Positions 533-52,697 of a DNA stretch of 64,000 nucleotides are shown here, piece by piece. The position numbers and the translations under genes are program-made. The notes under the pieces were generated by a model. That model saw nothing but the letters and a program-made list of their open reading frames with translations, searched no databases and was not told where the DNA came from. This DNA is from Lysinibacillus sphaericus OT4b.31 (GTDB lineage Bacteria > Bacillota > Bacilli > Bacillales_A > Planococcaceae), in NCBI RefSeq assembly GCF_000392615.1, contig NZ_KB933406.1, positions 1 through 64,000 of the forward strand, given 5' to 3'. The first letter of the stretch is position 1; each line of letters begins with the position of its first letter.

Positions 533-698
533 GGTTACTTCATAATAAAATTTACAATAATTCAAGTACGATTCCCACATAACAATCAAATCAATATTTA
601 AAACAATAACAATATAATAAAAAACAAAATAAATTTATTGATAATCGATAAATGTTATATTAAAATCATATAATCATTAAATCAGTGAGGTGCTTTAA

Positions 699-1172
699 AT
701 GAATGGTAAACTAGGTTCAACTTTTTTCTTAAAGGCTGTTGCTTTTCTTATTGGAATTGCAGTACTTGCCGTGTGTATATTTTTGTTGCCTGAAGCAGCC
801 AGAAGAGATGCTATAGTGCGTCCAGGAGATTACTCGATATATCCGTTGTTAATATGTGCGTATGGAGTATGCATTACGTTTTCTGTAGCTTTGTATCAAG
901 CATATAAACTATTGAGTTATATCGATAGTAACAACGCTTTTTCCGAGTTATCCCTTAAATCCTTGAAGGTTATAAAAAAATGCGCTTTTACAATTATTTT
1001 CTTAATTTTATTAGTAATAGTTTACTTAAGGGTGTATGCCATGTTCACGGGTGATGACCCAGCAGGTCCAATAGCACTTGGACTAATAGGGATATTAGCA
1101 ACAGCTATCATCGCTGCCATTATGGACGTACTTCAAAAGCCATTAAAAAATACCCTAGAAAAAAAGAAATAA
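699..1172 (+). CDS. DUF2975 family membrane protein
   Basis: A 157-residue protein with four predicted membrane segments (about 10-30, 48-68, 92-112, 124-142). The stretch ALYQAYKLLSYIDSNNAFSE in the middle is typical of DUF2975 proteins, which have no known function. The ATG follows GAGGTG. In Bacilli this family is usually followed directly by a small Cro/CI-type regulator (YozG-like); none follows here, so this copy looks unpaired. The C-terminus ends in a short lysine-rich tail. Confidence 0.75.
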   Translation: MNGKLGSTFFLKAVAFLIGIAVLAVCIFLLPEAARRDAIVRPGDYSIYPLLICAYGVCITFSVALYQAYKLLSYIDSNNAFSELSLKSLKVIKKCAFTIIFLILLVIVYLRVYAMFTGDDPAGPIALGLIGILATAIIAAIMDVLQKPLKNTLEKKK

Positions 1173-1522
1173 AAATGTAGATGTTTATTTTGCAGGTATA
1201 ATATCTTCTTTCCCTATTAAATTAAATGGCTCTTAAATGAAAAATTGGCGCCTATTCTTTTTCAAGAATTGCGCCCGATTGCGGAATAGTGGAAAATGCG
1301 AAAGAGCTGCAAAATGTCATTTCTAAATTTTTTCTAATGCACCCCATCCTTGATTATAGTAACATCTTTTTTAGTCTCGCTAAAATTCCTTTAAGAAATA
1401 AAGCATTTTTTTCAAATCCACGGCGTTTACACCACCCGATACTATTAAAAGCACCTGTAAATCGATAAAAAGGCAATACAATTACCTGTTAAAGGATTTC
1501 TAAAATAGCTTTTACCCGTTAT
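1173..1522. other. Intergenic region with repeat copy 3
   Basis: No gene seen. At 1236-1285 it holds the third copy of the short repeat (AAGAATTGCGCCCGATTG). This copy is preceded by TTGGCGCC, so a partial inverted repeat can form. The rest is AT-rich without a clear terminator for serS. Confidence 0.5.
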
Positions 1523-2907: not shown

Positions 2908-3154
2908 AAAAAGCCCCCATCCCTAAAAAGGGACGAGAGCTACCCGCGTTGCCACCCTAATTGATTAGGCATATACCTAATCCACTTATTTCATAACGGC
3001 ATTTCAGCCGGCTACAGCCTACTTACATTACTTCGACTGTGCAACTCCAGGACGGATTCACAAGTGCTTCTATCAGCTTCCACCAACCGCCGACTCTCTA
3101 AAAAAAACGTGCTTGCTACTACTTCCCATCATCGTGTTCAGTTATTTAAATTTT
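2908..3154 (-). ncRNA. T-box leader (serine-responsive) of serS
   Basis: On the minus strand the conserved T-box sequence AGGGTGGCAACGCGGGT (2942-2958) is followed by a terminator hairpin and T-run at 2908-2941. Upstream lies a typical stem I region: GAACACGATG start, the AGTA bulge, GGTTGGTGGAAGC, then GAATCC before TGGAG. The triplet UCC (3054-3056), a serine codon, sits where the specifier is expected. Uncharged tRNA-Ser should bind and stabilise the antiterminator. The T-box and terminator are seen directly; the exact specifier is inferred by position. Confidence 0.95.
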
Positions 3155-50555: not shown

Positions 50556-52034
50556 CTACATATATATAGTTTTTGTTGCAACTGTTTGTTGAAATGCCTG
50601 ATCATGCTCAACAATAACCATTGTGGGATTAAATCTTTGAATAAGCTCTTCAATCTGCATGCGCGAATAAATATCAATAAAATTTAACGGTTCATCCCAA
50701 ATATATAAATGAGCTTTTTCACATAAACTTTTTGCTATAAGCAGCTTTTTCTTTTGTCCACCAGAATAATGAGATATATCTTTCTCAAATTGAATTCGGT
50801 CAAAATCCATCTTACGTAGGATGGATTTAAATAACGTTTCATCAATCTCATGCTCTTCAATAAAGTCTGATAGCAGTCCCTTCAAATGAGAAGTATCTTG
50901 TTGGACATAGGAAATAATGATTCCTGAACCTAAATTTATTGAGCCAGTATGCTGTATCGGATCTCCTAGAATTAGTTTTAGGATACTACTTTTTCCGCTT
51001 CCATTCTTTCCATCAAGTATAATTCGGTCACCTTGTTCAACTTTAAAGCTAATTGGCTTATTCACTATTTGGTCATCGTACTTAACGGACAAATCAGCCA
51101 AAACAATCAATTCATTTGAATGAAATTCCAATGGTCCTAATTTTAATGATTCAGTTTTTTCCACATTTTTTAGCAGTTTTGACTTTTCCTCAATAGCTTT
51201 TTGTTGCCTTGATTCAAGGTTCTTTGCTCTCTTCATCATCTTTGCCGCTTTATGTCCTACAAACCCCTTATCCAACTTAGAACCCGAATTCGTTGCCCCA
51301 TTTTTGGAAGCTTCCACTTGATTAGACCAACCTGCTGAACGCTTTGAAGACTGTTTTAATCTTCCTATGTCTCTTTGTAGACGCTGATTTGTTGCCTCTT
51401 CGTGTTCCTGCTGTCGATCAAAATTTAACTTCCAAGTTGAATAGTTACCACTTTGAACTTCAATATTTGCTCTATTTATAGATAAGATATGGTCAACGCA
51501 TCCATCTAAAAAGATTCTGTCATGTGAAATTAAAATAAACCCTTTTTTCTTCCTTAGATAATCAGAGACCATCTTACGTGCATCAGTGTCTAGATGATTG
51601 GTTGGCTCATCAATTAAAAGAAATTGATTCTCAGTCAAAAAAAGTGCAGCAAGCAACACCTTTGTTTGTTCTCCATTTGATAATGTTTTAAATGGTCGGT
51701 ACATGACCTCGGCATCAACATTTAGATAGGATATTTCACGAAGAAATTCCCAATCTTCTGCTTGAGGGCAAATTTCTTCAAAAATTTCATAAGTATACTT
51801 GTTTTTATCTGCAACATGATACGGGAAATAATTAAATTCTACTGAAGAAGTAATTTTCCCACTATAGTCATAATTCCCTAATAATAAATTAAAGAATGTT
51901 GTTTTACCTCGCCCATTTCTACCAATAAATCCAAGTTTCCAATCCGTATCTATTTGAAAGTTTACCCCTTCAAAAATATTGTCAAAGCTACCTGGATAAG
52001 AAAAAGTTAAATCTTGAACTTTTATCATTGACAT
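50556..52034 (-). CDS. Lsa-type ABC-F ribosomal protection protein
   Basis: 492 residues from ATG 52034 (MSMIKVQDL), behind AAAGGAGGA. Two ATP-binding domains: GRNGRGKTTF, LSNGEQTK and IDEPTNHLD, then GKNGSGKSS, YSGGQKKK and IWDEPLNFID, joined by a charged helical linker (ERQQK-type, about 220-320). It has no membrane part, so it acts on ribosomes and displaces drugs. Similarity in length and motifs is to the Lsa branch (lincosamide, streptogramin A, pleuromutilin), but the specificity cannot be read from the sequence. Preceded by a layered regulatory leader. Confidence 0.88.
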   Translation of the reverse strand: MSMIKVQDLTFSYPGSFDNIFEGVNFQIDTDWKLGFIGRNGRGKTTFFNLLLGNYDYSGKITSSVEFNYFPYHVADKNKYTYEIFEEICPQAEDWEFLREISYLNVDAEVMYRPFKTLSNGEQTKVLLAALFLTENQFLLIDEPTNHLDTDARKMVSDYLRKKKGFILISHDRIFLDGCVDHILSINRANIEVQSGNYSTWKLNFDRQQEHEEATNQRLQRDIGRLKQSSKRSAGWSNQVEASKNGATNSGSKLDKGFVGHKAAKMMKRAKNLESRQQKAIEEKSKLLKNVEKTESLKLGPLEFHSNELIVLADLSVKYDDQIVNKPISFKVEQGDRIILDGKNGSGKSSILKLILGDPIQHTGSINLGSGIIISYVQQDTSHLKGLLSDFIEEHEIDETLFKSILRKMDFDRIQFEKDISHYSGGQKKKLLIAKSLCEKAHLYIWDEPLNFIDIYSRMQIEELIQRFNPTMVIVEHDQAFQQTVATKTIYM

Positions 52035-52045
52035 GATAATTCCTC

Positions 52046-52081
52046 CTTTGTATATCAACACTTTTTACTTTTTATACAAAG
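52046..52081 (-). promoter_or_regulatory. Shine-Dalgarno-sequestering hairpin
   Basis: CTTTGTATA (52073-52081) can pair with TATACAAAG (52046-52054) on the minus strand. The latter includes the start of the AAAGGAGG ribosome site, so translation could be blocked unless a ribosome or alternative pairing opens it. Confidence 0.6.
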
Positions 52082-52107
52082 TCGGTACATCCATCTATTG
52101 TAAACTT

Positions 52108-52147
52108 CTCCGTATAAGTTTGATGGATATTAACGACTTATACGGAG
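52108..52147 (-). promoter_or_regulatory. Long hairpin at the end of the leader peptide
   Basis: A 12-bp perfect stem (CTCCGTATAAGT with its complement). One arm lies within the last codons of the leader peptide. A second pairing (ATCCATC with GATGGAT, 52122-52128 and 52089-52095) interleaves with it, so the two exclude each other. Confidence 0.7.
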
Positions 52148-52183
52148 TATTACATGCGTAACAATAGTGTCTGAATTGCTCAT
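52130..52183 (-). CDS. Leader peptide of the Lsa-type gene
   Basis: 17 codons, MSNSDTIVTHVILRISR, with AAAGGAGAG upstream of the ATG. A ribosome stalled by a drug near VILRIS would mask one arm of the hairpin at 52108-52147 and change folding toward the gene start. Leader peptides are a known feature of antibiotic-induced ABC-F genes. The function is inferred from position and structure. Confidence 0.7.
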   Translation of the reverse strand: MSNSDTIVTHVILRISR

Positions 52184-52255
52184 TTTTCTCTCTCCTTTAT
52201 TTATTAGATTAAAGTTACAGATTAAAATAATGAATTTTAATCATGAGAGAATAAA

Positions 52256-52377
52256 AATCCTCCCAATTTGTCATTGGAAGGATTAGTCTTTCACTTATAC
52301 TAAATAAGTTCTTTTTTGCCATTGGAATCATGACAAATAAAGTTTAAACTGATTTATAAAAATGGACAGACTAATCC
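52256..52377 (-). promoter_or_regulatory. Terminator/antiterminator pair upstream of the leader peptide
   Basis: A terminator (AATCCTTCCAAT with ATTGGGAGGATT and T-run, 52256-52284) is overlapped by a 10-bp exact alternative: AGACTAATCC (minus strand, 52280-52289) can pair instead with GGATTAGTCT (52368-52377). The two pairings are mutually exclusive, the hallmark of attenuation. The triggering signal is unknown. Confidence 0.6.
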
Positions 52378-52521
52378 TATATTTTGTAGTTTGAAGTTAT
52401 TCATTTCAAATAAAAATATAGTTTAGTTAATCATTGTCCATCCATCAGTCCTCTCATAATTGTAATTTCATATTAACAAATTTTTTTCTGGAATACAATT
52501 CAGCATCATTTTCACCTCAAA
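52378..52521. other. Probable promoter region of the Lsa leader
   Basis: AT-rich; no box pair stands out clearly enough to assign. Confidence 0.3.
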
Positions 52522-52697
52522 TTACTGCTTGTTGCTCTTTTGATAATTTCCGTACAATCGACCACAAGCAGCATCTAAATCAATTCCAAATTGACTTCTA
52601 ATGGTCACATTATACCTGATGATTTTAATTTTTTGCAAAAATTAACAACATGACCTTCATCAACTTCACCAAACCTTAAAGGAGAACTGACAAAATC
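52522..52697 (-). pseudogene. Cfr-like 23S rRNA methylase, C-terminal remnant
   Basis: Reads LRFGEVDEGHVVNFCKKLKS, then after one missing A: VTIRSQFGIDLDAACGRLYG to the stop. This matches the last 55 or so residues of Cfr proteins (the VTIRSQFG and DAACGQLYGNYQ motifs), not the usual RlmN ending. The radical-SAM core is absent, so it is inactive. It lies directly upstream of the Lsa-type gene. Confidence 0.75.

What the first reader, a model, noticed from the sequence alone, without database searches (positions are those of the whole stretch)
52046..52377. Layered attenuation leader of an Lsa-type ABC-F gene
Read on the minus strand, three controls are stacked: a terminator that can be undone by a 10-bp alternative pairing, a 17-codon leader peptide whose last codons form half of a 12-bp hairpin (with an interleaved second pairing), and a hairpin that covers part of the Shine-Dalgarno. 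Known ABC-F leaders usually show one of these. I do not recall this arrangement or peptide (MSNSDTIVTHVILRISR) being described.
Basis: partly seen in the sequence, partly recalled or inferred. Interest (0 to 1): 0.75.

Follow-up and report, generated by a model that had tools for sequence, protein, structure and literature searches.

The report
Double-locked leader of lsa resistance genes
The stretch in front of this antibiotic-resistance gene appears to hold two switches in a row, each with its own tiny coding sequence: a known type that decides whether the gene is transcribed, and a conserved second one, which I found in no searched paper, that seems to decide whether it is translated.

Summary
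Observation confirmed; interpretation partly right. The second half is the interesting part. Its 17-codon uORF and hairpins recur before Lsa genes in 54 of 80 relatives, Bacilli and Clostridia, and before plasmid lsa(B). Three helices show compensatory changes, and the peptide looks selected at Val-Thr-His. In ribosome-masked folding the lsa Shine-Dalgarno is cheapest to open with the P site within one codon of that His in 35 of 36 non-redundant leaders; 0 of 120 shuffles of the window's leader match its gate. Best reading: two uORF attenuators in series, transcription then translation, which must both open. The second was in neither Rfam nor the open papers searched. Its inducer is unknown: a start-codon stall, as lincomycin causes, is predicted not to open it.

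The parts
52534..52641 (-). C-terminal remnant (36 aa matched) of a Cfr methyltransferase gene, just upstream of the leader; context, not part of the switch
   Evidence: tblastn of the plasmid Cfr, 66.7% identity
52470..52498 (-). possible promoter TTGTAT-17 nt-TAATAT
   Evidence: read from the sequence and seen again by eye in L003 and L005; not reported by the pattern scan; inference
52251..52467 (-). module 1: vmlR-type transcription attenuator (ncr1575)
   Evidence: Rfam RF02452, 152.9 bits, gathering score 60
52423..52434 (-). uORF1, Met-Ile-Asn-stop
   Evidence: a Met-x-x-stop is at this place in 37 of the 37 module 1 sequences aligned; same peptide as uORF(MIN) of vmlR
52368..52377 (-). 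antiterminator 5' arm
   Evidence: pairs with 52280-52289; 94.3% of cells paired in 37 leaders, no two-sided changes
52256..52284 (-). intrinsic terminator hairpin
   Evidence: 97.5% of cells paired
52188..52198 (-). Shine-Dalgarno of uORF2
   Evidence: AAAGGAGAGAG
52130..52183 (-). uORF2, MSNSDTIVTHVILRISR, leader peptide of module 2
   Evidence: 54 of 80 relatives by motif; codon test
52154..52162 (-). Val-Thr-His codons, predicted arrest site
   Evidence: peptide-level selection; P-site positions at which the SD is cheapest to free
52136..52147 (-). arm A (end of uORF2), pairs with B
   Evidence: 12 bp; two-sided changes at 3 pairs, one of them only in the degenerate row L144
52134..52137 (-). 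GTCG, can pair with CGAC inside the anti-SD (52081-52084)
   Evidence: all 4 pairs standard in all 32 rows; the SD closes again in the model when the mask reaches GTCG (His+2)
52122..52128 (-). arm P, pairs with P'
   Evidence: replaced by a different complementary pair in Clostridia
52108..52119 (-). arm B, pairs with A
   Evidence: in compact leaders this arm is the lsa Shine-Dalgarno itself
52089..52095 (-). arm P'
52073..52085 (-). anti-Shine-Dalgarno arm C
   Evidence: 99.4% of cells paired; GC 39, UA 7, AU 2 at one pair
52042..52054 (-). arm D with the lsa Shine-Dalgarno AAAGGAGG
50556..52034 (-). lsa gene, ABC-F ribosomal protection protein (492 aa, ATG at 52034)
   Evidence: NF000167 Lsa family, 812.6 bits, cut-off 750

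Best explanation
Two ribosome-sensing attenuators in series. Module 1 (ncr1575/vmlR type): a ribosome stalled on the tripeptide uORF1 blocks the stem around it, an antiterminator forms, and RNA polymerase reads past the terminator. Module 2: with no stall, the end of uORF2 (A) pairs with B, and the anti-SD (C) pairs with the lsa Shine-Dalgarno (D), so lsa is poorly translated even from full-length mRNA. A ribosome arrested with the P site at about Thr9-Val11, guided by the nascent ...VTH, covers A but leaves GTCG and P free. These pair with CGAC and P', take the anti-SD away, and open the lsa start. Expression needs both locks open. Shown here: conserved pairings with compensatory changes, peptide-level selection at VTH, modular occurrence, and a stall window in folding models that coincides with VTH. 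Inferred: that a drug causes the arrest, which drug, and that both layers act in vivo.
For: Module 1: Rfam hit 152.9 bits; tripeptide uORF in 37 of 37 aligned; the vmlR mechanism is experimentally established (PMC9226507). Module 2: A:B, P:P' and C:D have 7 pairs with two-sided changes against 2.5 in shuffles (0 of 500 as high) and at most 5 when slid; covariation score 0.101 against at most 0.043 slid. In Clostridia P:P' is replaced by another complementary set. In 39 distinct rows aligned on this motif His is in 39, Thr 38, Val 37; single-base codon differences at VTH are 90% synonymous, 26% expected. SD opening cost: median 6.1 kcal/mol with the ribosome at the start codon, 1.8 and 1.7 at Thr and His, 6.3 and more from His+2; minimum within one codon of His in 35 of 36; the window's gate is reached by 0 of 120 shuffles. 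Compact leaders, where B is the SD itself, drop from 7-12 kcal/mol before it to 0.1-0.2 at Thr9.
Against: No experiment. With VTH occupied the SD hairpin is still the minimum-energy structure in the window, only 1-2 kcal/mol from opening, so release is partial in the model. With no ribosome at all the SD is already cheap to open (under 2 kcal/mol) in 14 of 52 leaders; median 4.1. In compact leaders the SD stays cheap to open for every stall after codon 9, so their window has no far side. The antiterminator shows no covariation. Exceptions: L144 has lost A:B and P' before an Lsa match of full length; L151 and L152 are not shut on the 5' side, L120 weakly so; L081 reads VTY instead of VTH; L040 has lost uORF2. 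One of the 7 two-sided pairs rests on L144 alone. Drugs of the Lsa spectrum are reported to stall ribosomes at start codons (PMC12421871, PMC9226507), which would not open module 2. Leaders are related, so counts are not independent events.
Confidence: 0.68

Rival explanations
1. Only module 1 is a drug switch. Module 2 is a static brake or a translational-coupling device: the short ORF is translated constitutively and tunes basal lsa translation, with no programmed arrest.
For: uORF2 has its own good SD; LSAP drugs stall mainly at starts (passages of PMC12421871); Halobacillus lsa (L047, L064) has module 1 without module 2; in 14 of 52 leaders the SD is cheap to open with no ribosome present.
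Against: VTH selection at the protein level and its coincidence with the cheapest opening position are unexpected for a passive brake; the two codons after VTH look neutral (24% synonymous, 23% expected).
Confidence: 0.18
2. Module 2 senses a cellular state rather than a drug, for example slow decoding or shortage of Thr- or His-tRNA, or another nascent-chain ligand.
For: Thr and His are near-invariant while their codons vary.
Against: In 37 of 39 places found with the RNA model and inspected an Lsa gene follows; the other two are a contig end and a decayed copy; only two candidate hungry codons, unlike amino-acid attenuators.
Confidence: 0.08
3. The conserved sequence is kept for RNA structure only; the peptide is incidental.
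For: The end of the peptide (LRISR) overlaps arm A; its Arg becomes Tyr or Cys where A:B changes (L151, L152, L157), and L035 and L042 shift frame there while keeping A.
Against: Upstream of A, at VTH, changes are 90% synonymous, and all 55 uORFs found by the arm-A motif, which did not ask for them, contain Thr-His or, in L030, Val-His.
Confidence: 0.06

Closest known systems
Bacillus subtilis vmlR leader (Rfam ncr1575 type)
   Same: Tripeptide uORF inside an anti-antiterminator stem, antiterminator, CCUUCC terminator arm, TTNTTT-type motif before the terminator; transcription plus translation control of an ABC-F gene
   Different: vmlR has one uORF and a short SD-sequestering stem (219 nt in all, PMC9226507); here a second uORF and a separate A:B / P:P' / C:D switch follow the terminator
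Clostridioides difficile cplR leader
   Same: ABC-F gene under combined transcriptional and translational attenuation by a uORF (PMC10201436, passages)
   Different: One uORF (MRI); the terminator hairpin itself sequesters the SD
ermC- and cat-type translational attenuators (recalled, not searched)
   Same: Leader peptide whose codons form one arm of a hairpin; an arrest about 9-10 residues in would free the gene's SD
   Different: No sequence likeness that I know of (not tested); SD release here runs through a competing P/GTCG pairing; a transcription attenuator stands in front
msrD leader
   Same: uORF-dependent attenuation of an ABC-F gene
   Different: According to PMC9226507 (section 23) macrolide-specific arrest counters termination; that it has one uORF is recalled
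lsa(A) of Enterococcus faecalis
   Same: Lsa-family gene with a predicted uORF (MAGN consensus, PMC10201436, passages)
   Different: Different short uORF; its leader was not examined here for module 2

Membership tests
Rfam RF02452 ncr1575 / vmlR-type attenuator | covariance-model score above the gathering score | tested here: met
   152.9 bits, cut-off 60
Rfam RF02452 ncr1575 / vmlR-type attenuator | tripeptide uORF in the first stem | tested here: met
   MIN at 52423-52434; 37 of the 37 sequences aligned have M-x-x-stop
Rfam RF02452 ncr1575 / vmlR-type attenuator | antiterminator pairing that excludes the terminator | tested here: met
   10 bp in the window, 94.3% of cells paired in 37 leaders, but without two-sided changes
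Rfam RF02452 ncr1575 / vmlR-type attenuator | drug-induced readthrough | not testable with these tools
   needs Term-seq or in vitro transcription
Lsa-family ABC-F ribosomal protection protein | NCBIfam NF000167 cut-off | tested here: met
   812.6 bits, cut-off 750; closest solved chain Lsa(A), 7nhk
Translational attenuator with leader peptide (ermC-like) | uORF overlapping a hairpin that controls the SD of the next gene | tested here: met
   anatomy only; compact leaders have B as the SD
Translational attenuator with leader peptide (ermC-like) | peptide-level conservation of the stalling region | tested here: met
   VTH 90% synonymous, 26% expected
Translational attenuator with leader peptide (ermC-like) | stall position that frees the SD | tested here: met
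   in silico only: cheapest within one codon of His in 35 of 36
Translational attenuator with leader peptide (ermC-like) | drug-dependent ribosome arrest | not testable with these tools
   needs toeprinting
Translational attenuator with leader peptide (ermC-like) | sequence homology to erm leaders | not tested
   no erm leader was compared; no Rfam family matched 52034-52200 above its cut-off

The most novel reading that the evidence does not exclude
A two-input AND gate: module 1 opens when ribosomes stall early (start or first codons, as with lincosamides and pleuromutilins), while module 2 opens only on a nascent-chain-dependent arrest after nine to eleven residues. The gene would then respond to a combination or graded pattern of ribosome inhibition. 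With the P site on His the nascent chain has Thr in the penultimate position, a weaker arrest context of phenicols and oxazolidinones (PMC8987054, passages), drug classes covered by the cfr gene that adjoins this leader in a number of relatives.
Probability: 0.25. Interest if true: 0.85.

Novelty: new variant of a known kind. Interest (0 to 1): 0.62.

Why it matters
It identifies a conserved arrest-peptide-like element ([I/V]VTHxxL) and RNA switch in front of a whole branch of lsa genes, among them plasmid-borne lsa(B), and predicts the stall codon to within about one codon. That makes it directly testable. It also shows that uORF attenuators can be stacked in series and combined differently: another first layer in Clostridia, module 1 alone in Halobacillus, module 2 alone in Paenibacillaceae and others. 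If each layer responds to a different kind of stall, it bears on how resistance genes measure the kind as well as the presence of ribosome inhibition.

Tried and rejected
(1) Pairing between the conserved UUCUCUC after the terminator and the SD of uORF2: 7 bp in the window, but 37 of 200 shuffles do as well, and of 27 leaders only L006, L012, L013 and L017 had under 20 of 200; dropped.

(2) A third short ORF (MDVPTLYKK) over P' and C: noticed by eye. Its reading is not kept in the Paenibacillus leaders, and the Clostridial leaders printed there have no ATG at that place; dropped.

(3) Module 2 in front of other resistance genes: none among the 39 places inspected from searches of 261 family, 398 class and 398 phylum genomes (the sets overlap). 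The strict filters lose weak matches, and the phylum draw found only the window itself although Clostridial copies exist.

(4) Antiterminator covariation: none; all 500 shuffles equal or exceed the observed values.

(5) Two-sided changes in A:B were absent in the first 32-row set. They appeared only after I added 16 further rows. I chose those rows after seeing L151, L152 and L157; I also put in L144, which breaks the structure.

(6) Rows left out of counts: near-duplicates (52 non-compact leaders to 36); compact leaders L012, L015, L019; Clostridial rows in the pair counts of A2 and A3, because MAFFT misaligns their P'; L002 from the module 1 alignment.

(7) The original lsa(B) plasmid paper was sought by DOI and is not held.

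Full report
1. What is there. The gene 50556-52034 (minus strand) is an Lsa-family ABC-F protein (NF000167, 812.6 bits against a cut-off of 750). The stated interval begins inside the first module, and so misses a tripeptide ORF and its stem.

2. The first half is known. cmscan places 52251-52467 in RF02452 ncr1575 with 152.9 bits (gathering score 60). It contains ATG ATT AAC TAA, the uORF(MIN) of the B. subtilis vmlR leader, a CCTTCC terminator arm and a TTATTT motif before the terminator, as described for vmlR in PMC9226507 (abstract and sections 18, 22, 23 read, and passages). I did not check the genome position of ncr1575 in B. subtilis; the Rfam search rang in that control genome. In 37 of the 37 copies I aligned a Met-x-x-stop ORF sits at the same place (MIN, MIQ, MIH, MIY, MVN, MNN, MMN, MKN, MRN, MRK, MKI). 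Of 31 ncr1575 loci inspected (the 30 best-scoring of a longer list, plus L002), 20 precede Lsa, 10 precede another ABC-F (the VmlR-like label is my inference; no named ABC-F resistance subfamily of NCBIfam passes its cut-off for the L002 protein) and one precedes a lincosamide nucleotidyltransferase Lnu(G) (621.9 bits). So module 1 is a portable attenuator of genes against overlapping drug groups. The window's own genome has two ncr1575 copies, one before lsa and one before the other ABC-F.

3. The second half is conserved and not in Rfam. Of 80 relatives of the Lsa protein fetched (63-95% identity), 54 carry a uORF with the CTCCGTATA arm by motif. The covariance model adds L081 clearly (though with VTY for VTH) and L040 weakly (without the uORF). 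The peptides are MSxSDTIVTHVxLRISR, MSLELDVTHxLLRISR..., MSTDTVVTHDLLRISR and, in Clostridia, for example MNSAEQIVTHDSLRIVSV. Whole-genome searches with the model gave 30 of 261 genomes of the family, 11 of 398 of the class and 1 of 398 of the phylum, each count including the window's own. In 37 of 39 places inspected an Lsa gene follows; the other two are a contig end and a decayed copy. The lsa(B) gene of Staphylococcus, Enterococcus and Lysinibacillus plasmids (84.5% identical to the window's Lsa over the 483 residues aligned) has both modules, with uORF1 MIY and uORF2 MVLELDVTHELLRISR...; the two-module stretch is in 9 plasmid records at 99% identity or more.

4. Structure. A:B is 12 bp in the window. 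P lies in its loop and pairs with P' beyond B. C:D covers the lsa SD. On 48 Bacilli leaders, 97.4% of cells form standard pairs, 7 pairs have two-sided changes (2.5 in shuffles, 0 of 500 as high; at most 5 when slid; one of the 7 rests only on the degenerate L144), and the covariation score is 0.101 (at most 0.043 slid). A first 32-row set showed two-sided changes in P:P' and C:D but none in A:B. The Clostridial P:P' pairs (CGGTGA/TCACCG, TTGGTGAA/TTCACCGA) differ from the Bacilli pair (ATCCATC/GATGGAT) on both sides. In compact leaders (L012, L015, L019, and L153) B itself is the lsa SD, so A:B alone masks it.

5. The peptide. In 39 distinct rows aligned on this motif His is in 39, Thr in 38 and Val in 37; the motif search that found the uORFs did not ask for them. 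Single-base codon differences there are synonymous in 556 of 620 cases (0.90; 0.26 expected), while the next two codons look neutral (104 of 431; 0.24 against 0.23). Pairs of related rows are not independent. In L035 and L042 the frame shifts by one base just after His while arm A is intact, and in L151, L152 and L157 the Arg codon inside A becomes Tyr or Cys while A:B stays paired. So VTH is kept as peptide and A as RNA.

6. Where must a ribosome stop? I masked everything up to 15 nt past the first base of a P-site codon, and computed the cost of freeing five SD bases. In 36 non-redundant leaders the median cost is 6.1 kcal/mol at the start codon, 5.1 at His-2, 1.8 at His-1 (Thr), 1.7 at His, 2.4 at His+1, 6.3 at His+2 and above 6.5 at His+3 to +5; the minimum of the positions tested (His-5 to +5) is within one codon of His in 35 of 36 (all 52: 50). 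Changing the assumed footprint from +11 to +17 moves the window by about one codon either way. In 120 dinucleotide shuffles of the A-to-SD segment of the window's leader none reached the observed gate (4.7 kcal/mol; shuffle maximum 1.8). Against: with no ribosome the median is 4.1 and 14 of 52 leaders are under 2. Ten further leaders: the minimum is within one codon of His in seven (lsa(B), L157, L138, L120, L127, L132 and the compact L153), with L120 weakly shut on the 5' side; L151 and L152 are not shut on the 5' side and L144 has lost the switch. The logic is two-sided in full-size leaders: the ribosome must cover A but not GTCG, which with P takes the anti-SD away. In compact leaders only the first condition applies.

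7. Modularity. Rfam scans of 57 of the 80 loci (23 of L056-L082 were not scanned) find module 1 in 29; 26 of these also have module 2 by motif, and L040, L047 and L064 do not; 23 of the 57 have module 2 without an ncr1575 match. In 11 of 13 module-2 loci among L048-L082 a different first uORF, MINFSC[KR], lies about 340 nt upstream of lsa, so a two-layer order recurs with another first layer; nine of the 11 (L053-L060, L062) are near-copies. On the Lsa protein tree the labels are clustered, with 13 changes in all against 42.6 in shuffles.

8. Mechanism and limits. Module 1 is experimentally established in vmlR; here it is by homology. Module 2 is inferred from comparative and folding evidence. 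The inducer is open: lincosamides, streptogramins A and pleuromutilins are reported to stall ribosomes at start codons (passages of PMC12421871), which in the model leaves module 2 shut. Chloramphenicol and linezolid arrest with Ala, and less with Ser or Thr, in the penultimate position (passages of PMC8987054), which would fit Thr-His; this is a lead, not a result.

9. Novelty. vmlR and cplR already combine transcription and translation control (PMC9226507; PMC10201436, passages), so layering itself is known. Two overlapping leader uORFs were predicted for are5sc, where toeprinting supports translation of only the first (PMC12421871, passages). I found no description of module 2 or of two uORF attenuators in series on an ABC-F gene in the searches (listings; passages read of six papers, one of them also in sections); subscription papers are mostly outside that library, among them the original lsa(B) plasmid paper.

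Noticed in passing
window 52534-52641 (-); L003, L006, L007, L008, L017, L031, L032, L036, L085, L090, L096, L107, L147, L148, L149: A Cfr C-terminal remnant stands just upstream of the leader; in the 15 loci listed a long Cfr match (251-348 residues, 57-82% identity to plasmid Cfr, some cut by the locus end) lies before the lsa leader.
   Followed up: partly
L155:1218-1435 and L156:9431-9646: Plasmid-borne cfr has an extra ncr1575 copy about 100 nt downstream, with no gene of its own next to it and the start codon of its tripeptide uORF lost (seen in L155). The 331-nt stretch is in 133 of 72,556 plasmid records, all at 99% identity or more (two records inspected). It looks like a fossil of a chromosomal cfr-leader-lsa unit.
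   Followed up: partly
L101:1501-1723 (-) with gene 659-1462 (-): ncr1575 stands before a lincosamide nucleotidyltransferase Lnu(G) gene.
   Followed up: partly
L013: Its Lsa protein groups with the MSNSDT-leader clade, but its leader is of the MSLELDVTH type: leader and gene may have recombined.
   Followed up: no
L143:300-900 and downstream gene: An insertion separates arms B and P', and the Lsa gene matches only in two pieces: a decaying copy.
   Followed up: no
L142:1106-1254: A degenerate module 2 copy with no ABC-F gene after it, in a genome that also has a full copy.
   Followed up: partly
L011:52-122: A group II intron match lies where module 1 would be; the contig also ends there.
   Followed up: no
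L156 (plasmid of Lysinibacillus capsici): The lsa(B) leader has six matching places in one 81-kb plasmid.
   Followed up: no
L048, L053-L060, L062, L063, L073, L074, L076-L079, L081, L082: 19 of 34 loci (L048-L082 without L064) have an upstream uORF MI[N/R/I]FSC[K/R], apparently another attenuator type.
   Followed up: partly
window 2926-3141 (-): T-box leader (Rfam RF00230, 140.5 bits).
   Followed up: no
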